From Ornithinicoccus hortensis (GTDB lineage: Bacteria > Actinomycetota > Actinomycetes > Actinomycetales > Dermatophilaceae): a DNA stretch of 64,000 nucleotides. The stretch is taken from NCBI RefSeq assembly GCF_006716185.1, contig NZ_VFOP01000001.1:434001-498000 (forward strand), given 5' to 3'. Positions 4,340 through 47,286 of the stretch are shown in pieces. A program made the position numbers and the translations under genes. Below the pieces are notes generated by a model. It made no database searches. It was not told the origin of the DNA and saw only the letters and a list, made by a program, of their open reading frames with translations. How positions within the stretch are numbered: position 1 is the first letter of the stretch; every line of letters starts with the position of its first letter.

Positions 4340-4421
4340 GGGTCTCTCCTCGTATGTCGTGACCGCCATTGTGGCCGTCTCACCCCGGGGACGGAGCGGC
4401 CCGTGCGTTCTCGACATGTGT

Positions 4422-4449
4422 TGTTGAGATGCAGCGAAGGTTGCACAAC
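4422..4449 (-). repeat. 28-bp boundary repeat, copy 1
   Basis: Read on the minus strand, this matches the copy at 45556-45583 at 25 of 28 positions. It shares the core TTCGCTGCATCTC with the copy at 13378-13390. It lies between the YCII operon start and the first island gene. It is paired with a short inverted TCTCGACA at 4409-4416. The function is unknown. It could be a recombination site or a binding site. Confidence 0.6.
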
Positions 4450-4534
4450 CCTGAGCGGCGGACCTTGCACGCTCGAGTCCGCCGCGGCTGGTCGTGCAAA
4501 GTAGCGGTTCACTGTCGGCGGCAAGACAGGATGC

Positions 4535-5017
4535 CTACAGTTCGTCGAGGACTGCGAGGTCGTGGAGGTCCACGGCACGCGGGGGATAGCCACTTCGAAG
4601 CTCTCGGGCTCGCTCGGCACTGGCCACGACGACCGCTTGGCCGTCGATGAGGCCGGTGACTCTCTGCTTAGAAGGGTGGAGGTACACCTCGCCGTCGAGA
4701 CCTTGTTGAACTCCGGTACCGGCCGGGTCCAAGCGCATTGCGTGGACGTCTACTTGCCCCAAGGGACTCGATAGCTCCACGCGGACTGGTCGCCAATCCT
4801 CGGTGACTCGGTAGCCGCGGGAGGTGAGCCAGGCCATGAAGTCGGCCTCGTGATCTTCGTCGATAAACACGTCGAGATCTTGGTGGGGTCGAGTCTGTCG
4901 TCCCACCAGCGCATCGACACCCCATCCGCCGTTGACCTGATAGACCACACCGTTGGCGTCAAGCCAGGCGACGATCTGCACCACCTCGGCGGCGGTCATC
5001 TGGGAGGAGGTCTCCAT
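4535..5017 (-). CDS. Nucleotidyltransferase, lincosamide/aminoglycoside adenylyltransferase-like
   Basis: A 160-residue protein of the LinB/ANT(2'')-type nucleotidyltransferase fold. The GGWGVDALVG motif (about 30-39) and the metal-binding HQDLDVFID (Asp47, Asp49) are present. Family members adenylylate antibiotics such as lincosamides or aminoglycosides, but many are of unknown substrate and could equally be toxin-type transferases. The ATG at 5017 is preferred because GGGAG lies about 9 nt upstream. A second in-frame ATG is at 4999. It is the first gene of the accessory island and is read opposite to the next one. Confidence 0.75.
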   Translation of the reverse strand: METSSQMTAAEVVQIVAWLDANGVVYQVNGGWGVDALVGRQTRPHQDLDVFIDEDHEADFMAWLTSRGYRVTEDWRPVRVELSSPLGQVDVHAMRLDPAGTGVQQGLDGEVYLHPSKQRVTGLIDGQAVVVASAERARELRSGYPPRAVDLHDLAVLDEL

Positions 5018-5052
5018 AGGACAAGTCTCCCTCACCACCCACGGGGATCTTG

Positions 5053-5064
5053 CGACCTGCGGCA
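5053..5064 (+). repeat. Island intergenic motif CGACCTGCGGCA
   Basis: This is one of five close matches (core CGACCYGCGGCA) found only in gaps between island genes, all on the plus strand. Here it continues as TGAGCGTG and forms an imperfect inverted repeat: 5060-5072 pairs with 5101-5113 at 11 of 13 positions. It lies between the divergent nucleotidyltransferase and methyltransferase genes. Confidence 0.5.
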
Positions 5065-5220
5065 TGAGCGTGCACTCCGTCACCGTGCCCCGGGGCCCCA
5101 CATGCGCATGCCGACTCACGCCTGAACCACTCTCGCCCCTTCAGCTGCCAGTGGACTCTCTCCGGATACCACGCGGATATCGCGTCGACACGCGGCCGAC
5201 CGCCGGCCAGGTGGCAGGGA

Positions 5221-5958
5221 ATGAAGGAAGATGATTTGATGCGCCTGAGCACGGTCGAACAACTCTTCCAGCGCCTCGACGAGGTGGTCGCCGCTCATGA
5301 ACGAGGAGACCGGACCTCCCGGGAGTCCGAGCACTTCTGGGAGAAGATGCTGACGATCCCCAACCACCCGTTGAACACGAATCTGCCCGACGAGCCGCTC
5401 GTCGACTGGTATGAGCGAGGCTTTCTGGGTGACCTCAATGAGGCACGCGTCCTCGACGTCGGGTGCGGCAACGGACGTAACTCGGCCTGGCTGGCGAGCA
5501 AGGGCGCGAAGGTCACGGGTATCGACATTGCTACAGGACTGCTCGACGTCATGCGCCCCCGGATGCCCGAAGGTGTCACCCTCCTGCCTGTCGACGTCTT
5601 GCGTGAGGAACTCCCCGGTGATGCCTTCGACCTCGTGTATGACTCCGGCTGTTTCCACCATCTGGCCCCCCATCGACGCATCACGTACCTGGAGCAGGTG
5701 ATGCCCCGCGTTGCACGCGCCGGTAAGTATGGCATCGTCACCTTCGCCCAGGAGCGGCAGTCCAGCCCCAGCGACACCGAGATCCTCGTCAGCGGCGACA
5801 CGGCAGGCGGAACCTCGTTCGCGCTCAAGGATCTGGAGGCGATCTTTTGCCCGCATCTCCAACTTGTCGAAGCCCGCCCCGTCGCCGCAGGCATATCGGA
5901 AACCTTCGGCGCAGACTTTCTGAACGCAGCTCTGTTCACTCAACGGACGGGCCATTGA
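5221..5958 (+). CDS. Class I SAM-dependent methyltransferase
   Basis: This 245-residue Rossmann methyltransferase has motif I VLDVGCGNG (77-85) and an acidic post-I residue (GIDIA). It resembles small-molecule methyltransferases and thiopurine/tellurite-type enzymes more than DNA methylases, because no NPPY or PC motif is present. Two starts are possible: ATG 5221, or ATG 5239, which has GGAAG upstream within the first codons. Codon use is less G+C-rich than the chromosomal genes. It stands alone in the island, divergent from the nucleotidyltransferase. Substrate unknown. Confidence 0.8.
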   Translation: MKEDDLMRLSTVEQLFQRLDEVVAAHERGDRTSRESEHFWEKMLTIPNHPLNTNLPDEPLVDWYERGFLGDLNEARVLDVGCGNGRNSAWLASKGAKVTGIDIATGLLDVMRPRMPEGVTLLPVDVLREELPGDAFDLVYDSGCFHHLAPHRRITYLEQVMPRVARAGKYGIVTFAQERQSSPSDTEILVSGDTAGGTSFALKDLEAIFCPHLQLVEARPVAAGISETFGADFLNAALFTQRTGH

Positions 5959-6031
5959 AACACCTCAAAGCAGCGGTTCGGTCGCATGGACGTGCTCAAC
6001 TGAAGGGCCGCTCCAGCCCCGGCCAGGCCAG

Positions 6032-6043
6032 CGACCCGCGGCA
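6032..6043 (+). repeat. Island intergenic motif CGACCCGCGGCA
   Basis: This is the second copy of the plus-strand intergenic motif. It lies 74 bp beyond the methyltransferase stop, between two convergent genes, so it is unlikely to be a promoter for either. Confidence 0.5.
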
Positions 6044-6090
6044 GTGTCGGACGAGCGTAGCCGTCCTCCACGCGGCAGATCCGTGCGCTT

Positions 6091-6906
6091 CTAGAGAGGC
6101 TTGACGGTCACGGCACGGTAGGCAAAGCCGTCCTGGTCTGCAGGCTCGAACTCGAGCGCGACGGTCTGTCCGGGGACGAGTTCTCCGTACTCGGTCGCCT
6201 GGATGTGGCTGAAGTGGACCCAGCATCCACCCGGCGTCTGCTGGGAGTCCACGACGCCCCATCCTTCCTCCGGGTGCCACTCGAGCACGACTGCCTCGAT
6301 CGCGTAGTTCTCTGCACTCGGCTCGGCGGGCTCTCTGGAGGACGCCACCTTCTGTGCCGGTTCGAGATCGACCAGGTAACAGCTGCTGGGGTTGCGGTCA
6401 GCCGTGATGTCGAGTTGCGCCATTGGGCGTACGTGAAAGACGGGCTGGCGGTCGATCAGCATTACATCCGTGAGTCGCCAGTCACGGCGCACGTCGAGCT
6501 GGTGGAATGCTTCCCACTCATAGTCGGGCACGACTTCAAGCCGACCGACCGCTTCACCCATCGCCCCGAGGGACGGGGTCTTGAAGTCGGCGGAGTACCG
6601 CTCCAGCGCTTCGTGACCATCCGCGGTCTGTACCGAGCGGACGGCGGCCGGCTCGAGCAGGACCAGACACTCGCCGATGTCGATCACAGCCGCCTGCCGC
6701 CAGGCGGCGACCACGACGCCTCGCAGTCGGTGGGTGATGTCACCCTCCGTTGCCGCCCCTGCGGTCCACGCGCCTGTGGTCCTCTCTGCGCTCGGTCCGA
6801 ACGTGTCGCAGCTCAGTCGCAGCCCCTTGTGAGCCAACACCTCGCCGATGCACAGCTCAGGTACCTCGCCGTCGCCGAGGAGCCAGGTCTCCAGGGTGGC
6901 CCACAT
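6091..6906 (-). CDS. Unknown protein with C-terminal cold-shock-like domain
   Basis: A 271-residue protein. The last 70 or so residues look like a cold-shock OB fold: an EEGWGVV strand resembling RNP1, followed by WVHFSHI and a VALEFEPADQDGFAYRAV ending. That fold binds single-stranded nucleic acid. The first 200 residues are not recognised. The ATG at 6906 is chosen over an upstream TTG at 6969; a -10-like TACGGT lies 7 nt before it, suggesting a leaderless mRNA. The gene is alone, between a methyltransferase and a zinc-ribbon nuclease, so nucleic-acid sensing in defence is conceivable but unproven. Confidence 0.65.
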   Translation of the reverse strand: MWATLETWLLGDGEVPELCIGEVLAHKGLRLSCDTFGPSAERTTGAWTAGAATEGDITHRLRGVVVAAWRQAAVIDIGECLVLLEPAAVRSVQTADGHEALERYSADFKTPSLGAMGEAVGRLEVVPDYEWEAFHQLDVRRDWRLTDVMLIDRQPVFHVRPMAQLDITADRNPSSCYLVDLEPAQKVASSREPAEPSAENYAIEAVVLEWHPEEGWGVVDSQQTPGGCWVHFSHIQATEYGELVPGQTVALEFEPADQDGFAYRAVTVKPL

Positions 6907-6956
6907 CTCACAAACCGTAGCGCCCACAGGGCGATACCCGCCCTCGTCCGAGGCAG

Positions 6957-7242
6957 CTACCTGCGGCAAAACAGGACGCCGGTGCGCCGACTCCGCATGT
7001 CATGAGCCTTCGCGCAGTTCTCGCTCCTGCGGCATACAGCCGCAATAGCACGACCATCGCCGCACTGGGAGGGGTCGCTTGCAGCCGATCGCGGCGCTCA
7101 AGGGAAGGGCCGAGTGTGCCGGCGCGTAGTCGCACGCGCTTGGCGCTTGTGTGGGACCCGCTCACCGACGCTCTTGCGAAATCCTGAGTGTTCATCACCG
7201 GCGACGCGCCAGGGCTTGACCGGGCGTGACAGCATTCGGCGC
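6957..7242. other. Intergenic region with two weaker motif copies
   Basis: Two diverged copies of the island motif lie here, at 6957-6968 (continuing AAACAGGACGCC, close to 4516-4533) and 7023-7034. The latter starts a small hairpin, TGCGGC-ataca-GCCGCA, at 7029-7045. The rest, up to the nuclease start, shows no convincing reading frame. Confidence 0.35.
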
Positions 7243-9078
7243 ATGGCTCGGGAGACGCAGGAGTGCTCGGAGGCCGGGTGCAGGCGACCGGCTGTTTTCC
7301 GTACACGCACGAAGCCGACGTGGTGCGATGAGCACATCACCGCCATCTTCCAAACCGGTGGCCTTGAGCCGTTGGAGCCATTCGAGGGGCCGAAGAAGTG
7401 GCGCCTGACCCGGTGTCTTGCCTGTGGGTGCGAGGCGCACTACCGATTCGAGTACGTGATCGACCAAAATGGCATCGGCGTCGCGACGTGCAGGGCCTGC
7501 TACTGGCGTAAGTGGGCAGCCGACCAGCGAGGGCTGATGGAGGGGTTCGCAGACCTGACGCCGCCGTCGGTCGCGGTCGCCAAAGAGTTCGTGGAGCAGC
7601 ACGGTTTCAAGTACCTGGGTCCACTGACCGAACCGTCACTTCGGGATGATCCCCACCGGACGCGCTGTTTGCACTGCGGACGCATCGCGGCGCAACGACT
7701 CGGTGACGTGGGATGGGGCTGCCAGTGTCAGACAAACCCCCGGCGGGCGGCACAGACATCTGACTCGCCCGGCACCCGTCAACCTGGCACGAAGCCCACT
7801 AAGGACCTCCTCAAGGACTCGGGGCTGCCGGTCCTGACGTGGTGGGACCACGAGGTCAACGACGACACGGACTGGAACACGGCGACGGTGAAGGCGCGCC
7901 GAGAGGTGGGATGGAAGTGCCCGGAGTGCGACCTTCGGTTCAGCGCTCGTATCCTCGACATGACCGGCTACCCCAGCTGCCCGACCTGCTCCGTCAGAAG
8001 GAAGGCTGAGTGGCAGGCCGAGTACGCACGACTGAAGGTCACGCCCGTCGCGGACGTGCCTGAGCTCGCTGCGGCGTGGGCTGACGATGCCGACCCGACT
8101 CTCGTGACCGTCGCAGGCGGCGGTATGACCTTGCGACGCTTCCGGTGCCCGGCCGGCCACCATCCGCGGATCACTCCGCTCAGCTTCCTGCGCAACGGAT
8201 GCCCTTCCTGCAAGGGGAACGAGACCCGTACCGCACGCTTACAAGCCGTGGCAGCGGACCCCGGTGCGCACGCCATGAACCGCGAGATCGCGTCCCAGTG
8301 GCATACCGCCAAGAACGGCTCCCTGAAGCTCGAGACCACCTCGCCGGGTTCGCGAAAGACCGTGTGGTGGAAGAGTTGGGAGTGTGGCCACTCGTGGCAG
8401 GCCAGCCCCGCAGAAAGAGAGAAGGGGCAACGACTGCGCTGCCCCGAGTGCCGGACCATCCTCGACTCCATTGCTTACCACTTCCCGGAGATAGCCGATG
8501 AGTGGTCGCCGGACAACCCGCTCACCGCCTGGCAGGTCCGTCCGAGTGGCTCAACGGCATTTACGCCCGTCTGGGTCTGCAGCAATAACTTTCACCACAC
8601 TTGGACCGCAACCTTGTCCAGTCGAGCGGCCGGTTCAGGGTGTCCCGAGTGCCGTGAAGCCGGCAAATCCAAGGTCGAGCTCGCCCACCACGAGTCTGCA
8701 GTCCGCGTTTTCGGTGCCGCGTCCTCTGGGCAAGCCGTTGCCGACGAAGCGTTCACCCACGGCGCCCGCTGGCTCGTAGACATCACCACGGTGAACAGCA
8801 CTGGTCTGCAATTGGCGATCGAGTACGACGGCGCCTACTGGCACGCCGACAAAGCGACGATCGACACCGCAAAGTCTCTGGACCTACTCGCCGCTGGCTG
8901 GGCCGTCGTCCGGCTCCGCGAATACCCCCTTCCTACCTTGAACATCGACCACCCCTTCTATACCGAATTGGTCGTCCATGCGACCGCTCCAGACCCCGAC
9001 GCGGTGATGCGCCGGGTCGAACAGTGGACTGCGAGCCTCCACCCTGATGTTGGCCACGTTCGGCGGGACCATCGATGA
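7243..9078 (+). CDS. Multi-zinc-ribbon protein with C-terminal Vsr/PD-(D/E)XK-like nuclease
   Basis: A 611-residue protein. At least six paired-cysteine modules (CLACG, CLHCG, CPEC...CPTC, CPSC, CGHSW...CPEC, CPEC) match the DUF4379-type zinc-ribbon repeats with intervening W-HP/W-P motifs. The C-terminal 110 residues contain VDI..., IEYDGAYWH and AGWAVVRLREYPL, resembling Vsr/DUF559 restriction-like endonucleases. Such fusions occur in mobile and defence-rich loci and are predicted to read and cut DNA. The ATG at 7243 is chosen because the Cys-rich part begins just after it. Target and partner genes are unknown; no methylase of DNA type is adjacent. Confidence 0.72.
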   Translation: MARETQECSEAGCRRPAVFRTRTKPTWCDEHITAIFQTGGLEPLEPFEGPKKWRLTRCLACGCEAHYRFEYVIDQNGIGVATCRACYWRKWAADQRGLMEGFADLTPPSVAVAKEFVEQHGFKYLGPLTEPSLRDDPHRTRCLHCGRIAAQRLGDVGWGCQCQTNPRRAAQTSDSPGTRQPGTKPTKDLLKDSGLPVLTWWDHEVNDDTDWNTATVKARREVGWKCPECDLRFSARILDMTGYPSCPTCSVRRKAEWQAEYARLKVTPVADVPELAAAWADDADPTLVTVAGGGMTLRRFRCPAGHHPRITPLSFLRNGCPSCKGNETRTARLQAVAADPGAHAMNREIASQWHTAKNGSLKLETTSPGSRKTVWWKSWECGHSWQASPAEREKGQRLRCPECRTILDSIAYHFPEIADEWSPDNPLTAWQVRPSGSTAFTPVWVCSNNFHHTWTATLSSRAAGSGCPECREAGKSKVELAHHESAVRVFGAASSGQAVADEAFTHGARWLVDITTVNSTGLQLAIEYDGAYWHADKATIDTAKSLDLLAAGWAVVRLREYPLPTLNIDHPFYTELVVHATAPDPDAVMRRVEQWTASLHPDVGHVRRDHR

Positions 9079-9161
9079 GGCGTCACGCGTTGCTCCTAGC
9101 GGCTTGTCTGGACGTCCGCGCCCGCGTCACTCGCGGCGAAAGGACGCACCTCTGGAATGAC

Positions 9162-9173
9162 CGACCCGCGGCA
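9162..9173 (+). repeat. Island intergenic motif CGACCCGCGGCA
   Basis: This is the third strong copy. It continues TGACAGTGC, so the match to the 5053 copy extends to 17 of 21 positions. It lies between the nuclease stop and the next gene's promoter. A looser copy (ACTCGCGGCGAAAGGACGC) is about 30 bp upstream. Confidence 0.5.
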
Positions 9174-9223
9174 TGACAGTGCGTTTCGTGCAGGTCCCAT
9201 CCGAACGCCTCTAGGCTCGCAGC

Positions 9224-9766
9224 ATGAAGCCAGCCCCTCGGCAGGTAGCCAAAACCGTGACTCAGATCCTCCGGTCAGTCTGGCCGCAGGGCCTCGATGA
9301 GGGACTCCTATGGCTGGAGGCGATGGGAATTCGGACCGACACGGCCACGGAGACACCCCGGAGACGATCCTCTCGTTCCTGGCATATGGCCTCCATGCCC
9401 ACGTGGGGGACGGCGAGAGCGGGTTGGGGCACTTACCAAGACCGGTTCGCCGACGTTTTCTGGTTCCTCTGGGACGACGAAAGCTCCGAGCGCGTCCTTC
9501 ACGCGGCGACCGAACTGGCTGACCATCTCGCCGACGCCCTGGGTGAACCGACAGAGACCACAGAACCGACACCACTCAGCGGAGGGACCTGGTGGTGGCA
9601 ACTGGAAGGGCACAGCATCGAGATGTATGCCTACACCGACGCCCGAACGCCTGATGGCCACCCGACAGGGCCGCCCTGCGTGCAGCTGTCCGTCGACCTG
9701 CGAGAGGTGTCAGATCCTCGCGAAGCCGAAGCGCGTCGGTTGCAAGGAGGGCCGGGGTTTGGATAG
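9224..9766 (+). CDS. Hypothetical protein (possible internal compensated frameshift)
   Basis: A 180-residue reading frame without a family I recognise with confidence; the second half (FADVFWFLWDD, GGTWWWQLEGHSIEMYAY, VQLSVDLREVSDPREAE) looks like a conserved globular domain of actinobacterial DUF type. A TAGGCT -10 sits 6 nt before the ATG, so translation is probably leaderless. Codons of residues 45-70 (9356-9436) have poor third-position G+C in this frame, while the +1 frame reads plausible protein there. That suggests either two compensating indels or a non-conserved loop. Soluble; function unknown. Confidence 0.55.
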   Translation: MKPAPRQVAKTVTQILRSVWPQGLDEGLLWLEAMGIRTDTATETPRRRSSRSWHMASMPTWGTARAGWGTYQDRFADVFWFLWDDESSERVLHAATELADHLADALGEPTETTEPTPLSGGTWWWQLEGHSIEMYAYTDARTPDGHPTGPPCVQLSVDLREVSDPREAEARRLQGGPGFG

Positions 9767-9778
9767 TGCCGTCAAGCG

Positions 9779-9790
9779 CGACCTGCGGCA
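9779..9790 (+). repeat. Island intergenic motif CGACCTGCGGCA
   Basis: This is the fourth strong copy. It starts 13 bp after the preceding stop codon and lies upstream of the next gene's own promoter. Confidence 0.5.
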
Positions 9791-9871
9791 GATGCGTGGC
9801 CTGCTCGGCGGGCCCGTGTAGGGATACGCGTGGCGTCCTGAGTTTGGTCCTCGGTCGTTAAGATTCACCCC

Positions 9872-10330
9872 GTGCTGAACAAACCCCGAGCTGGCGCTCG
9901 GCCAACCACGTCCGAAGACGGCCCACACCGACAGGTCGACCAGCAGGCACCGCCAGCCATTTGGGGCCAGCTGGTCGCCGACGTCTTCGCCCTCGAGGGC
10001 GTCGTCGAGGGGATCAGCCAGGTGTCTCCCGCATCGTCGCGGGCGGTCTACCTCAGAGACATGACGCAGGAAATTGCGCCTGAAACGTCTCTGGCGCCAG
10101 GCAAGCGCCTCGAACCGGTGCATCTTCACGGGGTACAGGACACCAGCGTGCATCTGGTCCTGCCCACGGCCCGAGGTCAAGAGCTGGCCCGTCTGGGCTG
10201 GGCAGAACCGCACCAGTACGCGGATTACGGCACAGAGTTCATGATCTACGGTCCTCGAGACGCCGCCGAGCTGACAGGTGTTCTGTCCGTCATCGAAGAT
10301 AGCCTGAACTTCGCGCGCGCCGGCGCCTAA
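9872..10330 (+). CDS. Luciferase-domain (DUF5519-like) protein
   Basis: A 152-residue protein. The central and C-terminal segments (LEPVHLHGVQDTSVHLVLP and ARLGWAEPHQYADYG...MIYGPRDAAEL) match the pattern of the small luciferase/DUF5519 family: a conserved H-x-H-G and a terminal W-x-x-PH followed by YGPR. No catalytic activity is established for these stand-alone proteins. The GTG start at 9872 is 7 nt after a TAAGAT -10 element, implying a leaderless transcript of its own. Soluble; no operon partners. Confidence 0.6.
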   Translation: MLNKPRAGARPTTSEDGPHRQVDQQAPPAIWGQLVADVFALEGVVEGISQVSPASSRAVYLRDMTQEIAPETSLAPGKRLEPVHLHGVQDTSVHLVLPTARGQELARLGWAEPHQYADYGTEFMIYGPRDAAELTGVLSVIEDSLNFARAGA

Positions 10331-10348
10331 CAGCACTGGAAACACGCG

Positions 10349-10358
10349 CGTCGCGGCA
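10349..10358 (+). repeat. Weaker copy of the island motif (CGTCGCGGCA)
   Basis: This sits 19 bp beyond the preceding stop. It has the same orientation as the stronger copies and continues TGGTCGGACGC. It is listed because position and orientation fit the pattern, although the 5' half has diverged. Confidence 0.3.
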
Positions 10359-10427
10359 TGGTCGGACGCTACGCGTTCACAGCGGCAGATGCGCGCGTTC
10401 GCCCGAGCATGCGGTTACGCTCCGACG

Positions 10428-10682
10428 ATGACCCGTCGACGGCTACGAGTCCTGCTGATCGCCGGGCTTCCATTGGTCTTCGCCATTGGCTTGTTCATAG
10501 CCTCTGCCGTCAACTGGCATGCGGCGGAAAACAAGTGCGGCGTGCTGTTCGCATTCGATGAGCGCTTCGTTGACGCACACGAAGTCAGCTTCGAGAATCG
10601 CCTGTTGCCTCTGCCCGTCGAGTGCCGGTTCGACAACGGCATCACCGTCTCCCACCGCTGGTGGCCTACCGCCTCCGGGTGA
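10428..10682 (+). CDS. Small single-pass membrane protein
   Basis: 84 residues. The sequence runs Arg-rich N-terminus (MTRRRLR), one hydrophobic segment at about 8-27, and then a short extracytoplasmic tail with two cysteines (Cys37 and Cys64) that could form a disulfide. The ATG at 10428 is chosen because a TACGCT -10 lies 6 nt upstream and the Arg-rich start fits a membrane anchor. The family is not recognised. It is another single gene in the island with its own promoter. Confidence 0.6.
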   Translation: MTRRRLRVLLIAGLPLVFAIGLFIASAVNWHAAENKCGVLFAFDERFVDAHEVSFENRLLPLPVECRFDNGITVSHRWWPTASG

Positions 10683-10697
10683 GCCTCAGATCCGTCA

Positions 10698-10709
10698 CGA
10701 CTCGCGGCA
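10698..10709 (+). repeat. Island intergenic motif CGACTCGCGGCA
   Basis: This is the fifth strong copy. It continues TGAGCG as at 5053. It lies between two convergent genes, 16 bp after one stop and 13 bp before the other, and is framed by GATCCG/CGGATC inverted hexamers (10689-10694 and 10714-10719). Confidence 0.5.
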
Positions 10710-10721
10710 TGAGCGGATCGA

Positions 10722-11165
10722 TCAAGTTCTGGTAGCGGAGGCCTCGACCGGGGACAGGATGAGGCCTTCGTGGGTCACCGTTGATCCGAGAACCGTGTCG
10801 GACTGGTCCAGGAAGGTGACGTCGACGTTGCCCAGCCGGGTGAAGTTCACCGAGTCGCCGGTGGCGGCTGATACGTACTCGAAGAGACCGCCGAGCTCGT
10901 TCAGTGCACGAAAGATGGCTCGGTCATACGGGTATCGGAGCAAGACGGCGGTCGGTTGGGGTCGGAGATAACCGGGACGCGCTCCGACCCCCTCCTGGCG
11001 TATGGGAGAGAGCCACTCCAGCTCGTGAGTCAACGGGTGATCGGTGTCCCCGTCGTGAAAGAGCAACTCTATGGTTGCGGTCTTCGGCCGGAGCGACTCC
11101 ATCCACTTCGCTTGAGCCGCCTCATCAAGGGCGGGAATCACAACAAACTCAGCCTTCGTGCTCAC
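10722..11165 (-). CDS. Hypothetical protein
   Basis: 147 residues from a GTG at 11165 that has a strong GGAGG about 7 nt upstream. The protein is predicted soluble and mixed alpha/beta, with no family I recognise. It contains LLRYPYDRAIFRALNELGG and a C-terminal beta-rich part. It is the last gene before a 136-bp gap and the regulator/membrane operon. It lacks the start-proximal -10 seen in the neighbouring cassettes and instead uses a Shine-Dalgarno leader. Confidence 0.6.
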   Translation of the reverse strand: MSTKAEFVVIPALDEAAQAKWMESLRPKTATIELLFHDGDTDHPLTHELEWLSPIRQEGVGARPGYLRPQPTAVLLRYPYDRAIFRALNELGGLFEYVSAATGDSVNFTRLGNVDVTFLDQSDTVLGSTVTHEGLILSPVEASATRT

Positions 11166-11301
11166 AGGCCCTCCTCTCGGCAGGGCCGATCCTCTCATGT
11201 GCGAGAGGCACGTCCAGTGGTCGCGCCTCGGCCGTTGCGGGCGTTGACAGTGAGCCGGAGAGCGCGCCAGAGAAGCTCGGCTCGTGTGTGATTGGCGGTG
11301 C

Positions 11302-11598
11302 TTAACCCGCGAGTCCGGTGATTCTGCGCAGCTCGGCCAGGTGTCCCTGGAGTGCGGCGCGGCCAGTGTCGGTCAGGGTGAGCCAGGTTCTGGCCCGTCC
11401 GCGTTGGTTCTCCTTGGTGGTATGGACGTAGTCGGCGTCGACGAGGACTTTGAGGTGCTTGCTGACGACGTAGTCACTGACACCGAGAGCTTGTTGCACG
11501 GTGGCGAAGTCGACGGAGTCGACCTCAGCTAGCAGGCCACAGATTTGCAACCGATTTCGCGCATGAATGATCTCGTCGAACCGGGGTGCGGTGCTCAC
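11302..11598 (-). CDS. Winged-helix transcriptional regulator (MarR/ArsR-like)
   Basis: A 98-residue winged-helix DNA-binding protein. FDEIIHARNRLQICGLLAEV opens the first helix, the recognition region is FATVQQALGVSDYVVSKHLKVL, and the wing includes KENQRGRARTWLTLTDTG. This is the small winged-helix family often paired with a membrane protein. The GTG start overlaps the TGA of the upstream gene (GTGA), so translation is coupled. It probably represses its own operon through the inverted repeat at 12125-12141. It lacks the Cys ligands of metal-sensing ArsR proteins. Confidence 0.82.
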   Translation of the reverse strand: MSTAPRFDEIIHARNRLQICGLLAEVDSVDFATVQQALGVSDYVVSKHLKVLVDADYVHTTKENQRGRARTWLTLTDTGRAALQGHLAELRRITGLAG

Positions 11599-12104
11599 GG
11601 GCGGTTCTTGGTGGTGTCGGTGGGGAACCGTCCCTGGGCCAGACGCCGGTCGGTCCACTGTTCGTAAACGTTGGTGAAGGTGAACCCGACAGCGGCCCCG
11701 ATGAGGGGTGCGAGCTCGAGCCCGGCGAACTTCTGCAGTAGCGCGCACACCACGAACAGGCCGATCAGCATGAACGAGGGGATGGTCCAGCCGTTGTGGT
11801 AACGGTCGAAGGAGGCACCCGTGCTCTGCCGGAGGAGCTCACGGAGGCCAAGCGGGCCGATGATCACCGTCACGACCAGAAGTGATGCGCCGGTGCTGGC
11901 CGATCCGAAGGACAGGGTTTCGTACGGCATGCCCGAACCTACGAACATCACAGCCACAATCGAGGCGGAGACGAGCTTGTACCACCACGGCGTGACCAGA
12001 TGGTGACCGAACCGAGCCCGAGCCGCGTCTAGGTCCTGAAGGGCCGCGCGCGCCTCGTAAGCGCCGGGTCCCTCGGTGTGGGGGCCGTGTCCTGGGGTTG
12101 CCAT
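11595..12104 (-). CDS. Four-TM membrane protein co-transcribed with the regulator
   Basis: 169 residues. A soluble helical N-terminus of about 40 residues is followed by four hydrophobic segments (about 42-60, 72-90, 108-125 and 130-148). No transporter signature is seen. Such DUF-type membrane proteins are commonly encoded with PadR or winged-helix regulators. The ATG at 12104 follows a TAGCTT -10 by 6 nt, so the operon mRNA is likely leaderless. It overlaps the downstream regulator gene by 4 bp. Confidence 0.7.
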   Translation of the reverse strand: MATPGHGPHTEGPGAYEARAALQDLDAARARFGHHLVTPWWYKLVSASIVAVMFVGSGMPYETLSFGSASTGASLLVVTVIIGPLGLRELLRQSTGASFDRYHNGWTIPSFMLIGLFVVCALLQKFAGLELAPLIGAAVGFTFTNVYEQWTDRRLAQGRFPTDTTKNRP

Positions 12105-12142
12105 AGTGGCAAGCTAGCCTGTCGCTTGCCTTGTTGGCAAGT
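12105..12142 (-). promoter_or_regulatory. Leaderless promoter with inverted-repeat operator
   Basis: On the minus strand a -35 TTGCCA (12139-12134) and a -10 TAGCTT are 18 bp apart, with the start codon 6 nt downstream. A perfect inverted repeat CTTGCC-ttgtt-GGCAAG (12125-12141) covers the -35 element, and a third half-site GGCAAG lies at 12108-12113 over the -10. This is a good candidate operator for the winged-helix regulator encoded by the same operon. Confidence 0.65.
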
Positions 12143-12321
12143 CGAGGGCCCGGCACCCTCCCGAAGCATCCGACTCTCGGCGGTACAGCGATGTACCGAC
12201 CCTGGGCAGGCGGGGGCGCTGGTCACTGGCGTTATCCGTGGTGGGTGCGGCCATAGAATGGACGCGGGCTCGGCCCGATCCGAGGATGTCGGAGGTGAGG
12301 TGGCGCTCAGCTCTGGGAGTG

Positions 12322-12349
12322 AGCCCCCAACGGCCGGGGGTTCGGGGCT
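12322..12349 (-). terminator. GC-rich hairpin downstream of lsr2
   Basis: The stretch contains the inverted arms AGCCCC/GGGGCT and the nested CCCCC/GGGGG. It is placed 15 bp beyond the lsr2 stop. No U-tract follows, as is usual for actinobacterial terminators, so the call is tentative. Confidence 0.4.
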
Positions 12350-12363
12350 GTGACGTCGTGTGC

Positions 12364-12705
12364 TCAGGCCTTGTGGGCGGTTTCCCACTGGTCGATCAGG
12401 TCTTGGGGCAGTCGACCACGCTTGGGGTAGTCGATGCCCTGGTCGTCCAGCCATGACTTGATGGCTTTGGTCTGGGAGGGGTCACGGGGGGTGCTGCCGC
12501 CGCTGCCGGCCCGGCGGCGACCACCGATGCGGCGGGCGGCGTTCACGTACTTCTGGATCGTGTCGGCGAACTCGTCTGCTTCTGTCTGGGAGAGGTCGAT
12601 CTCGTAGTCCACTCCGAGGAAGCCGAACGTGACGGTCTGGCCGTCCGCGCCGAGTTCGTTCCCGGTCAGGTCTGAGACAAGGATGGTCTGCACCTTCTGC
12701 GCCAT
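12364..12705 (-). CDS. lsr2: Lsr2 nucleoid-associated xenogeneic silencer
   Basis: The 113-residue protein has the Lsr2 layout: an N-terminal dimerisation region (MAQKVQTILVSDLTG, then a beta-rich part with VTFGFLGVDYEIDLS), an Arg/Gly linker, and a C-terminal DNA-binding domain. The canonical AT-hook-like RGR is present in PKRGRLP. Lsr2 binds AT-rich DNA, bridges it and silences foreign genes. Its position at the inner edge of a lower-G+C island is suggestive, although lsr2 paralogs are common. Single gene, ATG start at 12705. Confidence 0.93.
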   Translation of the reverse strand: MAQKVQTILVSDLTGNELGADGQTVTFGFLGVDYEIDLSQTEADEFADTIQKYVNAARRIGGRRRAGSGGSTPRDPSQTKAIKSWLDDQGIDYPKRGRLPQDLIDQWETAHKA

Positions 12706-13449
12706 TGAGGCTCCTACCGGGGTTGGGATAGATCGACGTTCACCCTATGCGGTCATCCGCTGCCTCGGTGCACGATTGTCTCCGCCCAGGGCGGACTGAG
12801 GGCTTGAACTCGTTGAAGAACCAGCCCGCCTGGTCGGGCGCGTCCCGGGAAGTCACCTGCGGTGCTCGCGCCCCGTCGTTTGCTGCCGCCAGCCAGCCCG
12901 ACTTGGACGCCGACCACGTCACGCAGCCTGCTCGGCGTCATCGACAGGGCTCTGATCGTCACTGTGAGCCACGTCCACACCCTGACCACGCCGCCCCCTC
13001 TTTCAGCTGCCCTTGTAGCGCACGAGGGCGGGCCGCGAATCGTCAGCATTTGCTGGGGCTCGAGGGGTGGAGCGGGGACGTCTTGCTTGACGCTCTTACT
13101 GAAGGCCCGACGGGCAGGTGGGGCCAAGTTGCGCGGGCAAGGGTGCTAACCCGGGATCGGGCAAGGTGGGCTCTGGTCGAGCTCGCGGTGTGTGATGACT
13201 CGCCTTGCGTGCACCGCGCCGCTCGCCCCCAGTTGGAATGTCAGCCGTGGGGGTGTCCGCTCAGCGCTTCCGTCCACTCATGCGCTTTGGCAGCACGGGC
13301 CAGCAACCCACATCACTAGACGTGATGCTGGGCATTACATGTGCCTATTGATTCATACGAAGGTCGTTTGTGAACGATTCGCTGCATCTCGACATGTGTG
13401 GGGTCGGCGCACGAAGGCGGCGGCTGGACAGCGGGGCTAGAGTCGGGCC
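12706..13449. other. 744-bp region without a convincing gene
   Basis: The open frames here lack start signals, family similarity and consistent third-position G+C. The region holds the 28-bp repeat copy at 13366-13394 and the fdhA promoter: a TAGAGT -10 at 13438-13443, 6 nt before the ATG. It may be a decayed island end. Confidence 0.4.
13366..13394 (+). repeat. 28-bp boundary repeat, copy 2
   Basis: It shares the exact 17-mer TTCGCTGCATCTCGACA (13378-13394) with the copy at 45567-45583. The 5' part (GTTTGTGAACGA) is a diverged version of GTTGTGCACGC. It lies 55 bp upstream of fdhA, at the right edge of the island. Confidence 0.6.
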
Positions 13450-18930: not shown

Positions 18931-19026
18931 GGAGGCGTCTGGGCACCTGGTGGTCCCCCCGGTCTTCAACACCGGTGAGGCCGAGTAGCTCGGCCTGGCG
19001 GGTTCGATTCCCGTCCGCCTCCGCCA
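18931..19026 (+). tRNA. selC: tRNA-Sec (anticodon TCA)
   Basis: The gene has a long acceptor stem (GGAGGCG pairing with CGCCTCC), a discriminator G, an encoded CCA (19024-19026), an anticodon loop reading CTTCAAC with anticodon TCA, an extra-long variable arm (GAGGCCGAGTAGCTCGGCC region), and GGTTCGATTCC in the T-arm. At about 96 nt it is the right size for tRNA-Sec, which is charged with Ser and converted by SelA. It lies 29 bp after fdhC. Confidence 0.95.
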
Positions 19027-43739: not shown

Positions 43740-43997
43740 ATGACCACAATCAGCGCACGAGACGCATCCCGGGGATTCTCCACGCTGCTCGACCGCGTCG
43801 AGTATGACGGCGAGGAGTACACCGTCGAGCGTGACGGTCGGGTAGTAGCTCGTATCGTGCCGGCGACTACGCGCACCGTCGCAGGCTTCCTCGCTCGCCG
43901 CGCCGGACGTCTGCCGCTCGACGACGATTTCGCTGCCGAGGCTACGAGCGCAAACCCCCTTCTCACCGTGGACACAGCAGACCCATGGCACGCCTGA
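43740..43997 (+). CDS. Phd/YefM-type antitoxin
   Basis: 85 residues. The N-terminal Phd/YefM DNA-binding fold is clear (TISARDASRGFSTLLDRVEYDGEEYTVERDGRVVARIVP). The C-terminal tail (DDDFAAEATSANPLL) would wrap the toxin. It neutralises VapC and represses the operon. It overlaps the toxin gene by 13 bp. Located in a small accessory patch next to the broken azlD. Confidence 0.9.
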   Translation: MTTISARDASRGFSTLLDRVEYDGEEYTVERDGRVVARIVPATTRTVAGFLARRAGRLPLDDDFAAEATSANPLLTVDTADPWHA

Positions 43998-44383
43998 TCC
44001 TCGACACCAACGCCCTTATCCAGCTCGACCGCCACGGAGAGCGCGTCACCGGGATCTCCGAGTCTGACGACATCGCCATCGCTGCGGTCACGCTCGCCGA
44101 ACTGCGGCATGGCGCCCTGGCGGCGGACACGGCCAGGCGGCAGACGCGTGAGCAATTCATCCAGGACGTCGAGGAGACGATCGAGGTGCTGCCGTACACG
44201 CGATCGACCGCGGCGGAGCACGCCGCGCTACTCGACCACGTTCGTCGCTCAGGTAAACCTCGTGGCGCCCACGACCTCATCATCGCTGCGCACGCACGGC
44301 AGACCGGGCGCCGCGTCGTCTCCCTCGACGTCAAGGCACGCTTCAACGACCTACCCGGCGTCGGCATATCCACTGGGCAGTAA
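43985..44383 (+). CDS. vapC: VapC-type PIN-domain ribonuclease toxin
   Basis: 132 residues. PIN-domain acidic residues are present: Asp7 in LILDTNALI, Glu in AVTLAELRHG, Asp in RGAHDLIIAAHA, and the terminal SLDVKARFNDLPGV. VapC toxins cut tRNA or rRNA and inhibit translation. Co-translated with the Phd-type antitoxin. Mixed Phd-VapC pairing is common in actinobacteria. Confidence 0.92.
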   Translation: MARLILDTNALIQLDRHGERVTGISESDDIAIAAVTLAELRHGALAADTARRQTREQFIQDVEETIEVLPYTRSTAAEHAALLDHVRRSGKPRGAHDLIIAAHARQTGRRVVSLDVKARFNDLPGVGISTGQ

Positions 44384-44672
44384 CCGCAGTCGCGGGCACA
44401 ACCGTGCTGGGAAAGCAATACAGCAAAGGGGTGCGTCGTCGAGGCAAGATCCGTTCAGGTCCATGCTCGCCAGCGCAGTTCGTGTCCTTGGCTGCACTGC
44501 GACAAGTCTTGAGTGCATCTCGACAATTGCCCGATAACCAGTGGAGTCTCCGTATCCCCGAGTGGTTGGATCCCTGCCTGAGGCTGCGCTGAGGCGGCCC
44601 GCTTCACCGTGAGGCAAACGTGGGAGTCGGGAGGCGCGGGCTGTCGTTCGTAGAGTGCTGGAGGTGGTCGCG
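44384..44672. other. Intergenic region with a 12-bp repeat copy
   Basis: No gene is seen in this 289-bp gap. It contains TGCATCTCGACA at 44514-44525, identical to part of the 28-bp repeat. A Shine-Dalgarno, GGAGGT, at 44660-44665 serves the next gene. Confidence 0.5.
44514..44525 (+). repeat. 12-bp partial copy of the 28-bp repeat
   Basis: TGCATCTCGACA recurs in direct orientation at 45572-45583. The two copies bracket the methyltransferase gene at 44673-45461. Confidence 0.4.
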
Positions 44673-45461
44673 GTGACTGGTTATGGAGCCCTTGTCGACG
44701 TGTACGAGTGGCTTATCGGGGATGACAAGTTGACCCCCGCCGACTCTGCCGCTGTGTACTGCAGCGACCTCGGGAGCGCGGTACCGCCACACGTGCGCGT
44801 CCTCGACTGCGCGTGTGGAACCGGCCAACTCGCCGTCGGGCTAGCGAGTCTCGGCCTTGACGTCGTCGCGACGGACGCCAGCGATGGGATGGTCCGCCGA
44901 ACCCAACAGCTCGCGAGCGAACACGGTGTCTCGCTTCGTGCCCTTCGTGCGAGTTGGGACGAACTGCCCGATCACCTGGAGGACTCCACGTTCGATGTGG
45001 TGTTCTGCGTCGGCAACTCGCTCGGGCACGCCGAGGGTGCAGCCGGGCGCTCAACAGCGCTGGAAGCGATGGCACGGCTATTGACCCCGGGCGGACGTAT
45101 CGTGCTCACGTCACGAAACTGGGAACGCGTCCGCTCAGCCGGCTCGCGGGTAGACGTCCGAGATCGACTCATCACCCGGGATGGCCGCAGCGCGGTTGTC
45201 AGCTACTACTGGCAGATCCAGCCGCAATGGGGGCAGGAACACTTCCTTGAGATCGTGATCGCCGAGATCAAGCACGATGGAGGAGTGCGAGCCTGCTCGG
45301 AGCGGTTGTCTATATGGCCATACCGGTATGACGACCTCGTTGCGCAACTGCACAGCTGCGGTCTCACCGTGCAGTCCACCACCTACGAGCCCGAAAACGA
45401 GGGTTACGTGCTGGTCGCCAGCCGACACGAGTCGCCCGGCACGTCCGAGCCTGCGCGCTAA
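44673..45461 (+). CDS. Class I SAM-dependent methyltransferase
   Basis: 262 residues: YGALVDVYEWLIGDDKL, motif I VLDCACGTGQLAVGLASLG, ATDASDGMV, DVVFCVGNSLGH, LTPGGRIVLTSRNWE, typical of glycine/sarcosine-type and related small-molecule methyltransferases. GTG 44673 is chosen because of GGAGGT 7 nt upstream. G+C is lower than in neighbouring core genes, and the gene is bracketed by short direct repeats, so it looks acquired. Substrate unknown. Confidence 0.8.
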   Translation: MTGYGALVDVYEWLIGDDKLTPADSAAVYCSDLGSAVPPHVRVLDCACGTGQLAVGLASLGLDVVATDASDGMVRRTQQLASEHGVSLRALRASWDELPDHLEDSTFDVVFCVGNSLGHAEGAAGRSTALEAMARLLTPGGRIVLTSRNWERVRSAGSRVDVRDRLITRDGRSAVVSYYWQIQPQWGQEHFLEIVIAEIKHDGGVRACSERLSIWPYRYDDLVAQLHSCGLTVQSTTYEPENEGYVLVASRHESPGTSEPAR

Positions 45462-45506
45462 TCCGCCGTCTGTCCTGCCACTGCCGATCTGGTGAACAGC
45501 GCAGTT

Positions 45507-45540
45507 TGCGCGGGCTCCCGCGGGAGCCCGCTCTGCGCAA
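45507..45540. terminator. 22-bp perfect palindrome, bidirectional terminator
   Basis: GCGGGCTCCCG (45510-45520) is followed by its exact complement (45521-45531), with outer TTGCGC/GCGCAA arms. It sits between the convergent methyltransferase and dnaB genes. Confidence 0.75.
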
Positions 45541-45555
45541 GATAGACCGCGTGTA

Positions 45556-45583
45556 GTTGTGCACGCTTCGCTGCATCTCGACA
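45556..45583 (+). repeat. 28-bp boundary repeat, copy 3
   Basis: It ends 4 bp from the dnaB stop codon. It is 25 of 28 identical to the reverse complement of 4422-4449 and shares an exact 17-mer with 13378-13394. Confidence 0.65.
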
Positions 45584-45587
45584 GCAA

Positions 45588-46967
45588 TCAGAAGTTGTTC
45601 GCCATGTTCGTGAACCTGCTGTAGTGCCCCTGGAACGCCACCGTGATCGTGTCCGTGGGACCGTTACGGTGCTTGGCCACGATCACGTCAGCCTCACCTT
45701 CGCGCGGTGACTCCCGCTCATACAGCGACTCACGGTGAAGCAGGATCACGACGTCAGCATCCTGTTCGATCGATCCACTTTCGCGAAGGTCGCTCATCTG
45801 CGGCTTCTTGTCGGTGCGCTGCTCGGGACCACGGTTCAGCTGCGACAGCGCGATGACCGGGACCTCGAGCTCCTTGGCGAGCAGCTTCAGTGCACGGGAG
45901 AACTCGGAGACCTCCTGCTGGCGGGACTCCACCCGCTTGCCCGAACTCATCAGCTGCAGGTAGTCGATGATGACCAGCTTCAGGTTGTGCTTCTGCTTGA
46001 GGCGCCGGCACTTGGCCCGGATCTCCATCAAGGACATGTTGGGGCTGTCATCGATGAACAGCGGCGCACCGTGGATCCGCCCCTGGGTCTCGGCGATGCG
46101 CTGCCAGTCCGAGTCCTGCAGGGTGCCCTTGCGCATGTGCTGCAGCGGGATCTTCGCCTCCGCGGACAGCAGGCGCATCGTCATCTCGGTGCGGCCCATC
46201 TCCAGGTTGAAGACGACGGTGGCCATGTTGTGCTTGATGGACGCGGAGCGGGCGATGTCTAGTGCGAAGGTCGATTTGCCGACGGCAGGTCTGGCCGCGA
46301 CGATGATCATCTGCCCGCCGTGCAAACCGTTGGTCAGCTCGTCCAGGTCGGTGAACCCGGTGGGCACCCCGGTCATCTCCCCGGAGCTGCCGGCGGCGTG
46401 CTCGATCTCGTCCATCGTCGGCTCGAGCAGTTCGGCCAGGATCGTGTAGTCCTCACCGCCCCGCTTGTCGGCGACGCCGTAGACCTCTGCCTGGGCCTGG
46501 TTGACGATGTCCTCGACATCGCCCCCGCCCTGGCCGTAGCCCATCTGGACGATGCGGGTGCCGGCCTCGACCAGGCGGCGCAGGACGGCCCGCTCGGCCA
46601 CGATCTCGGCGTAGTAGCTGGCGTTCGCCGCGGTCGGGACGGCGGCGATCAGTTGGTGCAGGTAGGCCGTGCCGCCCACCCGTGCCAGGTCGCCGCGCTT
46701 GCTCAGCTCGTCGCTGACCGTGATCGCGTCGACCGGCTCACCCCGGGAGTAGAGGTCGACGATAGCGTCGTGGATGGTCTCGTGGTTGGGCCGGTAGAAG
46801 TCGCTGGGCTTGACCAGCTCGGCGCAGTCGGCGATGGCGTCCTTGGACAGCATCATGCTGCCGAGGGCGCTCTGCTCGGCAGCCAGGTCTTGGGGCGGCA
46901 CCCGCTCGTCGGGCGGCCCGTCGGGCACCTCGGAATACATCCCGTGGTCCAGCTCGCTGAGCGACAT
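45588..46967 (-). CDS. dnaB: Replicative DNA helicase DnaB
   Basis: 459 residues. The N-terminal helical domain (PPQDLAAEQSALGSMML...SDFYRPNHETIHDAI) is followed by a RecA-like helicase with Walker A ARPAVGKST, Walker B LVIIDYLQLM, the QQEVSEFSRALKLLAKEL motif and an arginine-finger region SGSIEQDADVV. No intein is present. The ATG at 46967 has GGAGGG 5-10 nt upstream. Hexameric helicase that unwinds at the fork. It lies on the same strand as the rpsF-ssb-rpsR-rplI operon 10 kb upstream, the usual actinobacterial origin-side order but with extra genes between. Confidence 0.96.
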   Translation of the reverse strand: MSLSELDHGMYSEVPDGPPDERVPPQDLAAEQSALGSMMLSKDAIADCAELVKPSDFYRPNHETIHDAIVDLYSRGEPVDAITVSDELSKRGDLARVGGTAYLHQLIAAVPTAANASYYAEIVAERAVLRRLVEAGTRIVQMGYGQGGGDVEDIVNQAQAEVYGVADKRGGEDYTILAELLEPTMDEIEHAAGSSGEMTGVPTGFTDLDELTNGLHGGQMIIVAARPAVGKSTFALDIARSASIKHNMATVVFNLEMGRTEMTMRLLSAEAKIPLQHMRKGTLQDSDWQRIAETQGRIHGAPLFIDDSPNMSLMEIRAKCRRLKQKHNLKLVIIDYLQLMSSGKRVESRQQEVSEFSRALKLLAKELEVPVIALSQLNRGPEQRTDKKPQMSDLRESGSIEQDADVVILLHRESLYERESPREGEADVIVAKHRNGPTDTITVAFQGHYSRFTNMANNF

Positions 46968-47112
46968 CCAGCCCTCCATCTCTCTGCGTCTGAACACAAC
47001 CATCCCCCACCGACAGAGCCCGCGGGCCGGCCGTCCACAGCCGGGTCCGCACTCGCTCGGTGAGGGGATTCGCCCCAGAGTAGGCGTCCGCGCGGCCCCG
47101 GCCAAGCAGCCC

Positions 47113-47189
47113 TGTGGACGGACCTGTGGACCCCCTGTGCACAACGTTGGGGACGATCGTGCACAGGTTGTGCACAGGCGTGTGGATAC
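47113..47189. promoter_or_regulatory. Cluster of DnaA-box-like sequences upstream of dnaB
   Basis: Six 9-mers resembling the reverse complement of TTGTCCACA lie on one strand within 77 bp: TGTGGACGG (47113), TGTGGACCC (47125), TGTGCACAA (47136), TGCACAGG (47160), TGTGCACAG (47169) and TGTGGATAC (47181). None is a perfect box. The 319-bp gap between dnaB and the MATE gene holds no other gene. Confidence 0.45.
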
Positions 47190-47286
47190 CGCCCGGTCTC
47201 TCCTGGTGATGCCGCCCTGACCTGCACGGACGTCGTCCACCGGGTGTGGAGGCAAGAAACTCTCGGCGACGTTCTAGGCTCACACC

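What the first reader, a model, noticed from the sequence alone, without database searches (positions are those of the whole stretch)
4409..13399. Cassette-like gene array with a recurring same-strand intergenic motif
The core CGACCYGCGGCA occurs at 5053, 6032, 9162 and 9779, with one-base or weaker variants at 10698, 10349, 6957, 7023 and 4512. All lie outside genes and all are on the plus strand regardless of gene orientation. They are usually 10-80 bp past a stop codon. The genes between are single, functionally unrelated and mostly self-promoted. This is the geometry of integron cassettes, but the motif is not a GTTRRRY/attC core and no IntI is present. One site (5060-5113) and one weaker site (7029-7045) form imperfect hairpins. 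It may be an undescribed actinobacterial cassette system.
Basis: partly seen in the sequence, partly recalled or inferred. Interest (0 to 1): 0.8.

Follow-up and report, generated by a model that had tools for sequence, protein, structure and literature searches.

The report
Integron-like gene cassettes in actinobacteria
A stretch of this actinobacterial genome is a row of small mobile gene cassettes joined at a short shared DNA sequence, part of a gene-swapping system, apparently undescribed, that works like the integrons of other bacteria but seems to use a different enzyme and a different joining site.

Summary
The motif is real and marks cassette boundaries. A site model trained without the window or G007 finds 10 sites in the 64-kb window, all on the + strand, all between 4518 and 10704. 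They divide an array carried on a Tn7-like element (4422-13394; inverted ends, 5-bp duplication) in which no transposase was recognised. In other species of the genus the same cassettes, up to 99.8% identical, have unrelated neighbours, and homology starts and stops at the core GCGGCA. Of 128 cross-genome matches, GCGGCA is the top 6-mer at starts (39), ends (49) and both (22; next best 2). A 309-aa Xer-like tyrosine recombinase, not found in this genome at E<=1e-40, co-occurs with such arrays across Actinomycetota; a core lies upstream of its divergent start in 14 of 22 regions read and 32 of 60 elsewhere: an integrase-attI layout. It works like an integron but is not a member: below the IntI profile cut-off, no GTTRRRY core, no folded attC detected, gene orientation mixed. 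The site resembles dif (arms around 6 bp). Catalysis is inferred, not shown. My literature searches (open-access papers only) listed no description.

The parts
4417..4421 (.). left copy of the 5-bp target duplication TGTGT
   Evidence: read; part of direct repeat TCTCGACATGTG
4422..4517 (.). left end of the Tn7-like element: inverted terminal repeat (4422-4448) and further TGCA-type repeats (TnsB-type sites, by analogy)
   Evidence: same sequence in G005
4518..4523 (+). core GCGGCA of site 1, attI-like position beside the transposon left end
4524..5064 (+). cassette 1: nucleotidyltransferase-like gene on the - strand (frame 4535-5119, likely start near 5017)
   Evidence: Pfam PF10706 1.3e-36; 99.8% identical unit in G007, 91.4% in G010
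5059..5064 (+). core of site 2
5065..6043 (+). cassette 2: methyltransferase-like gene 5221-5958 (+)
   Evidence: Pfam PF13649 2.1e-15
6038..6077 (+). sites 3 and 4 (cores 6038-6043 and 6072-6077) around a gene-less mini-cassette
6078..6968 (+). cassette 4, ending in site 5 (core 6963-6968): gene on the - strand in frame 6091-6969, weak cold-shock-domain match
   Evidence: Pfam PF00313 0.0049, under its cut-off
6969..9173 (+). cassette 5, ending in site 6 (core 9168-9173): frame 7114-9078 (+), DUF4379 treble-clef repeats
   Evidence: Pfam PF14311 5.2e-34
9174..9790 (+). cassette 6, ending in site 7 (core 9785-9790): frame 9224-9766 (+), no family
   Evidence: two copies in G007, 99.7% identical each
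9791..10358 (+). cassette 7, ending in site 8 (core 10353-10358): frame 9872-10330 (+), 'Luciferase domain' family
   Evidence: Pfam PF17648 2e-16; adjacent to cassette 6 in one G007 copy
10353..10387 (+). sites 8 and 9 (cores 10353-10358 and 10382-10387) around a gene-less mini-cassette
10388..10709 (+). cassette 9, ending in site 10 (core 10704-10709): small protein in 10428-10682 (+), no family
10710..12364 (.). region after the last scored site: small gene 10722-11168 (-), winged-helix regulator 11302-11601 (-), putative membrane gene 11595-12104 (-)
   Evidence: window 10704-11209 matches an array locus of G001 at 86%
12364..12705 (-). Lsr2-like nucleoid protein, part of the conserved right side of the carrier element
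   Evidence: Pfam PF11774 1.9e-20; window 12177-13145 is 99.2% identical to G005
13368..13394 (.). right inverted end of the Tn7-like element
   Evidence: end sequence TTCGCTGCATCTCGACA
13395..13399 (.). right copy of the 5-bp target duplication TGTGT
   Evidence: read

Best explanation
The island is an array of mobile gene cassettes carried on a non-autonomous Tn7-like transposon. Cassettes are joined by direct repeats of one short site of about 28 bp: partly symmetric arms of about 11 bp around the 6-bp core GCGGCA, in which strand exchange takes place. A 309-aa Xer-like tyrosine recombinase, encoded in relatives but not found in this genome, excises and inserts cassettes at these sites, with a preferred site just upstream of its own divergently transcribed gene. 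Arrays without that gene, such as this one, are passive stores that can be fed or emptied in trans. SHOWN: the site, its orientation, the breakpoints, the shared cassettes, the co-occurrence of the recombinase. INFERRED: that this recombinase is the catalyst, that the intermediate is a circle exchanged as double-stranded DNA, that the upstream site is preferred, and that the Tn7-like element spreads the array.
For: Breakpoints: GCGGCA is the commonest 6-mer at starts (39 of 128), ends (49 of 128) and both (22 of 128; next best 2, a shifted form) of cross-genome matches; junctions printed base by base for three window cassettes. Orientation: 475 sites on the array strand, 10 on the other. Held-out prediction: 10 sites in the window, none outside the island. 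Recombinase: conserved upstream stretch that ends at GCGGCA and then diverges: core present in 14 of 22 upstream regions of the 21 loci (my count by eye), and in 32 of 60 usable loci outside the window genus. A matrix trained on the window genus alone finds 195 sites on the array strand and 15 on the other in 61 recombinase loci outside the loci I set apart as window family, in 55 of 61; control loci without the gene give 1 site in 182 kb. Catalytic R161, H251, H277 and Y286 are invariant in 17 aligned members. Nearest curated profiles are XerD/XerC types.
Against: The window genome and G005 hold arrays but no recombinase match at E<=1e-40; in the genus 10 of the 26 genomes with sites lack any match. 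Two genus genomes have a match but no site at E<=0.01 (G006, only the 43% class; G022, an incomplete draft). Five of 20 recombinase loci gave no covariance-model site (L135, L137, L138, L139, L145). In 8 of 22 upstream regions no core was seen, and 28 of 60. Several copies are broken (stops or fragments; R254 lost in L139). No recombination has been observed; matches between related genomes are not independent.
Confidence: 0.85

Rival explanations
1. The cassettes are moved by the housekeeping XerC/XerD recombinases, like dif modules of Acinetobacter plasmids; the 309-aa recombinase is a passenger.
For: The site has a dif-like build, and arrays occur in genomes without the 309-aa gene. Long Xer-type recombinases occur in all five genomes searched (my reading of the list).
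Against: Sites cluster beside the 309-aa gene in 64 of 71 loci outside the genus, against 1 site in 182 kb of control; its upstream region ends at the core. In dif sites the 6-bp centre is the variable part (PMC6449649, passages); here it is the constant part.
Confidence: 0.1
2. The sites are mobile hairpin repeats (REP- or MITE-like) scattered between genes; the gene units are not themselves mobile.
For: Tandem 28- and 34-bp units with hairpins occur, and spans of at most 80 bp pair end to start more than shuffled (5.18 v. 3.89, 0 of 500).
Against: Whole gene units are shared with both ends at GCGGCA (22 of 128); one orientation per array; large cassettes show no hairpin signal.
Confidence: 0.03
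3. Homologous recombination between short repeats shuffles the units; no dedicated enzyme.
For: Some tandem runs are long (8.3 x 28 bp).
Against: The junctions share little beyond the core, yet break there; arm positions are conserved across genera.
Confidence: 0.02

Closest known systems
Integrons (IntI, attI, attC), and CALINs for arrays without integrase
   Same: Array of cassettes with equally oriented sites, tyrosine recombinase gene divergent from a site at the array's start, integrase-less arrays, carriage on a Tn7-like element.
   Different: Recombinase far under the IntI cut-off (61 v. 265 bits); core GCGGCA, not GTTRRRY; no folded attC detected at the 3' end of large cassettes; one and the same short site at the first position and between cassettes; genes in both directions; several units bearing the recombinase gene are themselves bounded by cores.
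dif modules (pdif, XerC/XerD) of Acinetobacter
   Same: Genes flanked by about 28-bp sites, two 11-bp arms around 6 bp (PMC6449649, passages).
   Different: Here sites are direct repeats in one orientation, the centre is invariant and the arms vary, and a dedicated recombinase co-occurs. Dif modules are flanked by inverted sites (same paper, passage).
Tn7-like transposons
   Same: The ends match elements whose relatives encode TnsA-, TnsB-, TniB- and TniQ-type proteins, some beside dnaB. Tn7-like elements with integrons as cargo, and an Actinobacteria-dominated clade, are known (PMC8649781, passages).
   Different: In the window copy no transposase was recognised; its cargo is the GCGGCA array.
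Simple (arm-less) phage integrases of Gordonia and Arthrobacter phages
   Same: Sequence relatives of the recombinase: 110 phage records, the ten listed 46-48% identical.
   Different: Phage integrases by annotation; no cassette array was looked for there.

Membership tests
Integron | Integrase of the IntI family | tested here: not met
   TIGR02249 61 bits, cut-off 265; XerD/XerC/PRK00283 124-127 bits, also under their cut-offs. R-to-H spacing 90 residues (R161-H251), 96 in XerD (counted in the alignment); the longer IntI spacing is recalled.
Integron | Core site GTTRRRY (recalled) | tested here: not met
   Breakpoint 6-mer is GCGGCA
Integron | Folded single-stranded attC at the cassette 3' end | tested here: not met
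   Folding energy z -0.20 top, 0.00 bottom, internal -0.09 (120 of 239 cassettes sampled); core complement upstream 5.32 v. 5.34 shuffled (239); end-start pairing 3.10 v. 3.10 (241). A small excess downstream (5.15 v. 5.02, 1 of 200 shuffles reach it) and in chromosomal junctions (3.40 v. 3.24, 2 of 500) is unexplained, arm symmetry being the likely cause.
Integron | attI beside a divergent integrase gene | tested here: met
   Layout met in 14 of 22 regions and 32 of 60; function not tested
Integron | Array of mobile cassettes with equally oriented sites | tested here: met
Integron | Mostly promoterless genes in one direction, read from a common promoter | tested here: not met
   Orientation only: 98 against and 85 with the array, 3 unassigned, of 186; promoters not tested
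dif module (XerC/XerD) | 28-bp sites, conserved arms, variable 6-bp centre, acted on by XerC/XerD | tested here: not met
   Length and arms similar; centre invariant, arms variable. Enzyme dependence not testable here.
Tn7-like transposon | TGT..ACA inverted ends, 5-bp target duplication | tested here: met
   Window: inverted ends, TGTGT on both sides. G005 sister element: GCATC on both sides (left copy read)
Tn7-like transposon | TnsA, TnsB, TnsC, TniQ/TnsD genes | tested here: inconclusive
   Not recognised in the 11 island proteins scanned (frames at 12747-13319 not scanned). In relatives with such ends: TnsA 3.2e-6, TniB 4.6e-13, TniQ 2e-14 and 3.3e-15, rve only 0.0055
REP/MITE hairpin repeat | The repeat moves, not the gene between repeats | tested here: not met
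   Whole gene units shared with both ends at the core

The most novel reading that the evidence does not exclude
Actinomycetota have their own, phylum-wide class of gene-capture platform, separate in enzyme and site from integrons: a Xer-like recombinase acting on short double-stranded dif-like sites with an invariant GCGGCA centre, the recombinase gene itself packaged between sites so that the platform can travel as a cassette, and a sister lineage (recombinase about 43% identical) using another core, GCGGCG.
Probability: 0.65. Interest if true: 0.93.

Novelty: new variant of a known kind. Interest (0 to 1): 0.9.

Why it matters
IntegronFinder 2.0 reports no complete integrons in Actinobacteria, one In0 and a few CALINs (PMC9024848, passages). 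If this system works as inferred, Actinomycetota do have cassette capture, missed because enzyme and site differ. The arrays read here hold acetyltransferase-, nucleotidyltransferase- and methyltransferase-like genes and many without a family (by eye), some shared almost unchanged between species, so they are a new place to look for recently moved accessory genes. A second, differently built cassette system would also show which integron features are essential and which are accidental.

Tried and rejected
Plain motif statistics: with 1-2 mismatches the 12/13-mer is not a safe sign. The first covariance model (R1) was built on a poor structural alignment (4 pairs, no covariation); it served only as a finder and was replaced by a matrix. 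Folded-attC idea: not supported for large cassettes. Adjacent pairs or triplets of other tyrosine recombinases (RIT-like; name recalled) and the phage-like integrase in L042 lie near some arrays but are not consistently linked (by eye). Empty site of the island: the right flank was found in relatives (12 loci listed; 11 compared, 76-83% identical), the left flank was not in those 11 stretches of about 4 kb. Structure of the recombinase: job interrupted, then the tool was off. Plasmids: one record, 42%. Viral contigs: one locus, 37%. PADLOC: one real match, the methyltransferase to mads_2 (1e-16); otherwise only weak ones.

Rows dropped: locus L100 (duplicate of L132), same-genome pairs, matches under 200 or over 3000 bp, under 85% identity, or within 10 bp of a locus end. 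L137 and L140 were not in the array set (L140 overlaps L089; L137 gave no site). Parts of the outputs were cut and not seen; searches list only the first places. In one search, 8 of 79 loci (window genus) were set apart, 11 of the other 71 had no usable start, and at least five of the 71 are loci whose arrays helped train that matrix; one search repeats the test without them (61 loci, training on 111 of 120 contexts). Which loci belong to the window family I set by hand from titles and contig lengths.
Full report
THE OBSERVATION. The bare motif is common genome-wide once a mismatch is allowed (129 against 156 in the reversed control), so it cannot be judged by itself; the whole site can. From 120 unique contexts at which homology between array loci breaks at GCGGCA it reads: C at -10 (0.72), G at -9 (0.58), C at -6 (0.88), GCGGCA, C at +5 (0.70), G at +6 (0.96), K, R, Y, G at +10 (0.79). 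A matrix trained on 104 of the 120, without window and G007 loci, finds 10 window sites, all on the + strand between 4518 and 10704, and none elsewhere in the 64 kb on either strand. In the 31 genomes of the genus a plain pattern of the site gives 194 hits against 45 for the pattern read backwards (summed).

THE CARRIER. The island has lower G+C (0.63-0.67) than its surroundings (0.70-0.76) and ends in inverted repeats 4422-4448 / 13368-13394 with TGTGT on both sides. The end sequence TTCGCTGCATCTCGACA (up to 1 mismatch) occurs in 17 of 31 genomes of the genus, with 0 hits of the reversed control. Relatives with such ends encode TnsA-, TniB- and TniQ-type proteins and a TnsB-sized protein with a weak rve match, some beside dnaB. 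Among 11 island proteins scanned no transposase was recognised; frames at 12747-13319 were not scanned. The first 102 bp of the left end, to the first core, are the same in G005, and two right-hand stretches are 99.2% and 98.1% identical, while the sequence after the first core differs; the G005 element has GCATC on both sides. One chassis, different cassettes.

THE CASSETTES MOVE. Among 128 matches (200-3000 bp, at least 85% identity) between array loci of different genomes, GCGGCA is the commonest 6-mer at the start (39), at the end (49) and at both (22; next best 2). The window's first cassette is 99.8% identical in G007 and 91.4% in G010; cassette 6 occurs twice in G007, once followed by cassette 7 as in the window and once by something else. 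One search prints the junctions: homology begins at the core with unrelated sequence before it and ends at the core with different sequence after it. In the array set 475 sites lie on the array strand and 10 on the other (score >=2). There are 393 spans of 20-3000 bp between neighbouring sites (score >=4), median 541 bp, 137 of them at most 80 bp.

THE RECOMBINASE. Clustering of open frames near arrays pointed to a 309-aa tyrosine recombinase (P0001). In the family search 55 of 186 genomes have a match at E<=1e-40, in two classes (about 60-100% and about 38-49% identity), and 58 of 186 have sites by covariance model. In the genus 26 of 31 have sites and 18 of 31 a match, three of these only of the lower class; 10 have sites without a match, this genome among them, which I read as integrase-less arrays. 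Upstream of the divergent gene a conserved stretch of about 60 bp runs to GCGGCA, after which each genome continues differently; the core is present in 14 of the 22 upstream regions printed. Fifteen of 20 recombinase loci gave covariance-model sites. The genome-contig scan kept 79 loci, all of Actinomycetota by title except one draft genome labelled Acidobacteria, whose contig has the length of one that the other tool places in the window genus (G022). Outside the window genus 238 sites lie on the array strand and 15 on the other, in 64 of 71 loci; 286 kb around the lower class give 9. With training on the window genus alone and family loci set apart: 195 and 15, in 55 of 61 loci; control 1 site in 182 kb. 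R161, H251, H277 and Y286 are invariant in 17 members; R254 is lost in one. The catalytic lysine I did not settle.

HOW IT PROBABLY WORKS. Partly symmetric arms around an invariant 6-bp centre, and nearest profiles XerD/XerC (best solved relative XerD), suggest exchange of double-stranded sites inside GCGGCA, like dif (28 bp, 11-6-11; PMC6449649, passages). The asymmetry of the centre would give every cassette the same site orientation whatever the direction of its gene; genes point both ways (98 and 85, 3 unassigned, of 186). A folded attC was not detected for large cassettes. Several units carrying the recombinase gene are themselves bounded by cores and shared between genomes (L091/L133, L134/L141, L142/L144 and others), so the gene seems to travel like a cassette.

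A SISTER LINEAGE? Around the lower-class recombinases GCGGCG is the top end 6-mer (38 of 183 matches), but at both ends only 2, and the top start 6-mers come from the conserved end of the gene; L241 has tandem units with GCGGCG. This is a lead, not a result.

WHAT IS KNOWN. It works like an integron; by the tests here it is not a member (profile, core, folding, orientation). IntegronFinder 2.0 (PMC9024848, passages) reports no complete integron in Actinobacteria; integron integrases carry a specific insertion (PMC8138268, passages). Searches (listings; open-access papers only, no preprints) showed no description of such a system in what they listed; that does not exclude one.

LIMITS. No recombination was observed. 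Matches between related genomes are not independent events. One genome per species was held, so gain or loss within a species was not seen. Promoters and expression were not studied.

Noticed in passing
window 44514-45583: A methyltransferase gene (44655-45461) lies between two direct copies of the Tn7-like end TGCATCTCGACA, next to the 3' end of dnaB (45588-47255, -); a PIN-domain toxin-like gene (43985-44383) precedes it.
   Followed up: partly
G000:C1:1816122-1816138 (L011 10123): A third exact copy of the 17-bp transposon end elsewhere in the genome, without an obvious partner end.
   Followed up: no
L233-L252, notably L241 8560-8780: Recombinases about 43% identical to P0001 have their own conserved upstream region and, in L241, tandem units with core GCGGCG: a possible sister cassette system.
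   Followed up: partly
L034 8327-15637, L036 13809-19338, L038 7621-15527: Complete-looking Tn7-like gene sets (TnsA-, TnsB-, TniB-, TniQ-type, second TniQ), two of them on stretches that also carry dnaB.
   Followed up: partly
L031, L027, L020: Two transposon ends face each other 5 bp (or slightly more) apart, as if elements insert beside existing ends.
   Followed up: no
window 12364-12705; L033 8893-9234: An Lsr2-like silencer gene sits in the conserved right side of the carrier in both G000 and G005; it may silence newly arrived cassettes.
   Followed up: no
G000:C1:10815-13182: Three adjacent tyrosine recombinase matches (RIT-like triplet, name recalled).
   Followed up: no
phage records: Integrases of Gordonia and Arthrobacter phages are relatives of P0001 (ten listed: 46-48% identical), which may bear on the origin of the cassette recombinase.
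   Followed up: no
window 18931-19026: A selenocysteine tRNA gene, a few kb from the gene starting near 13450 that looks like a formate dehydrogenase (by eye).
   Followed up: no
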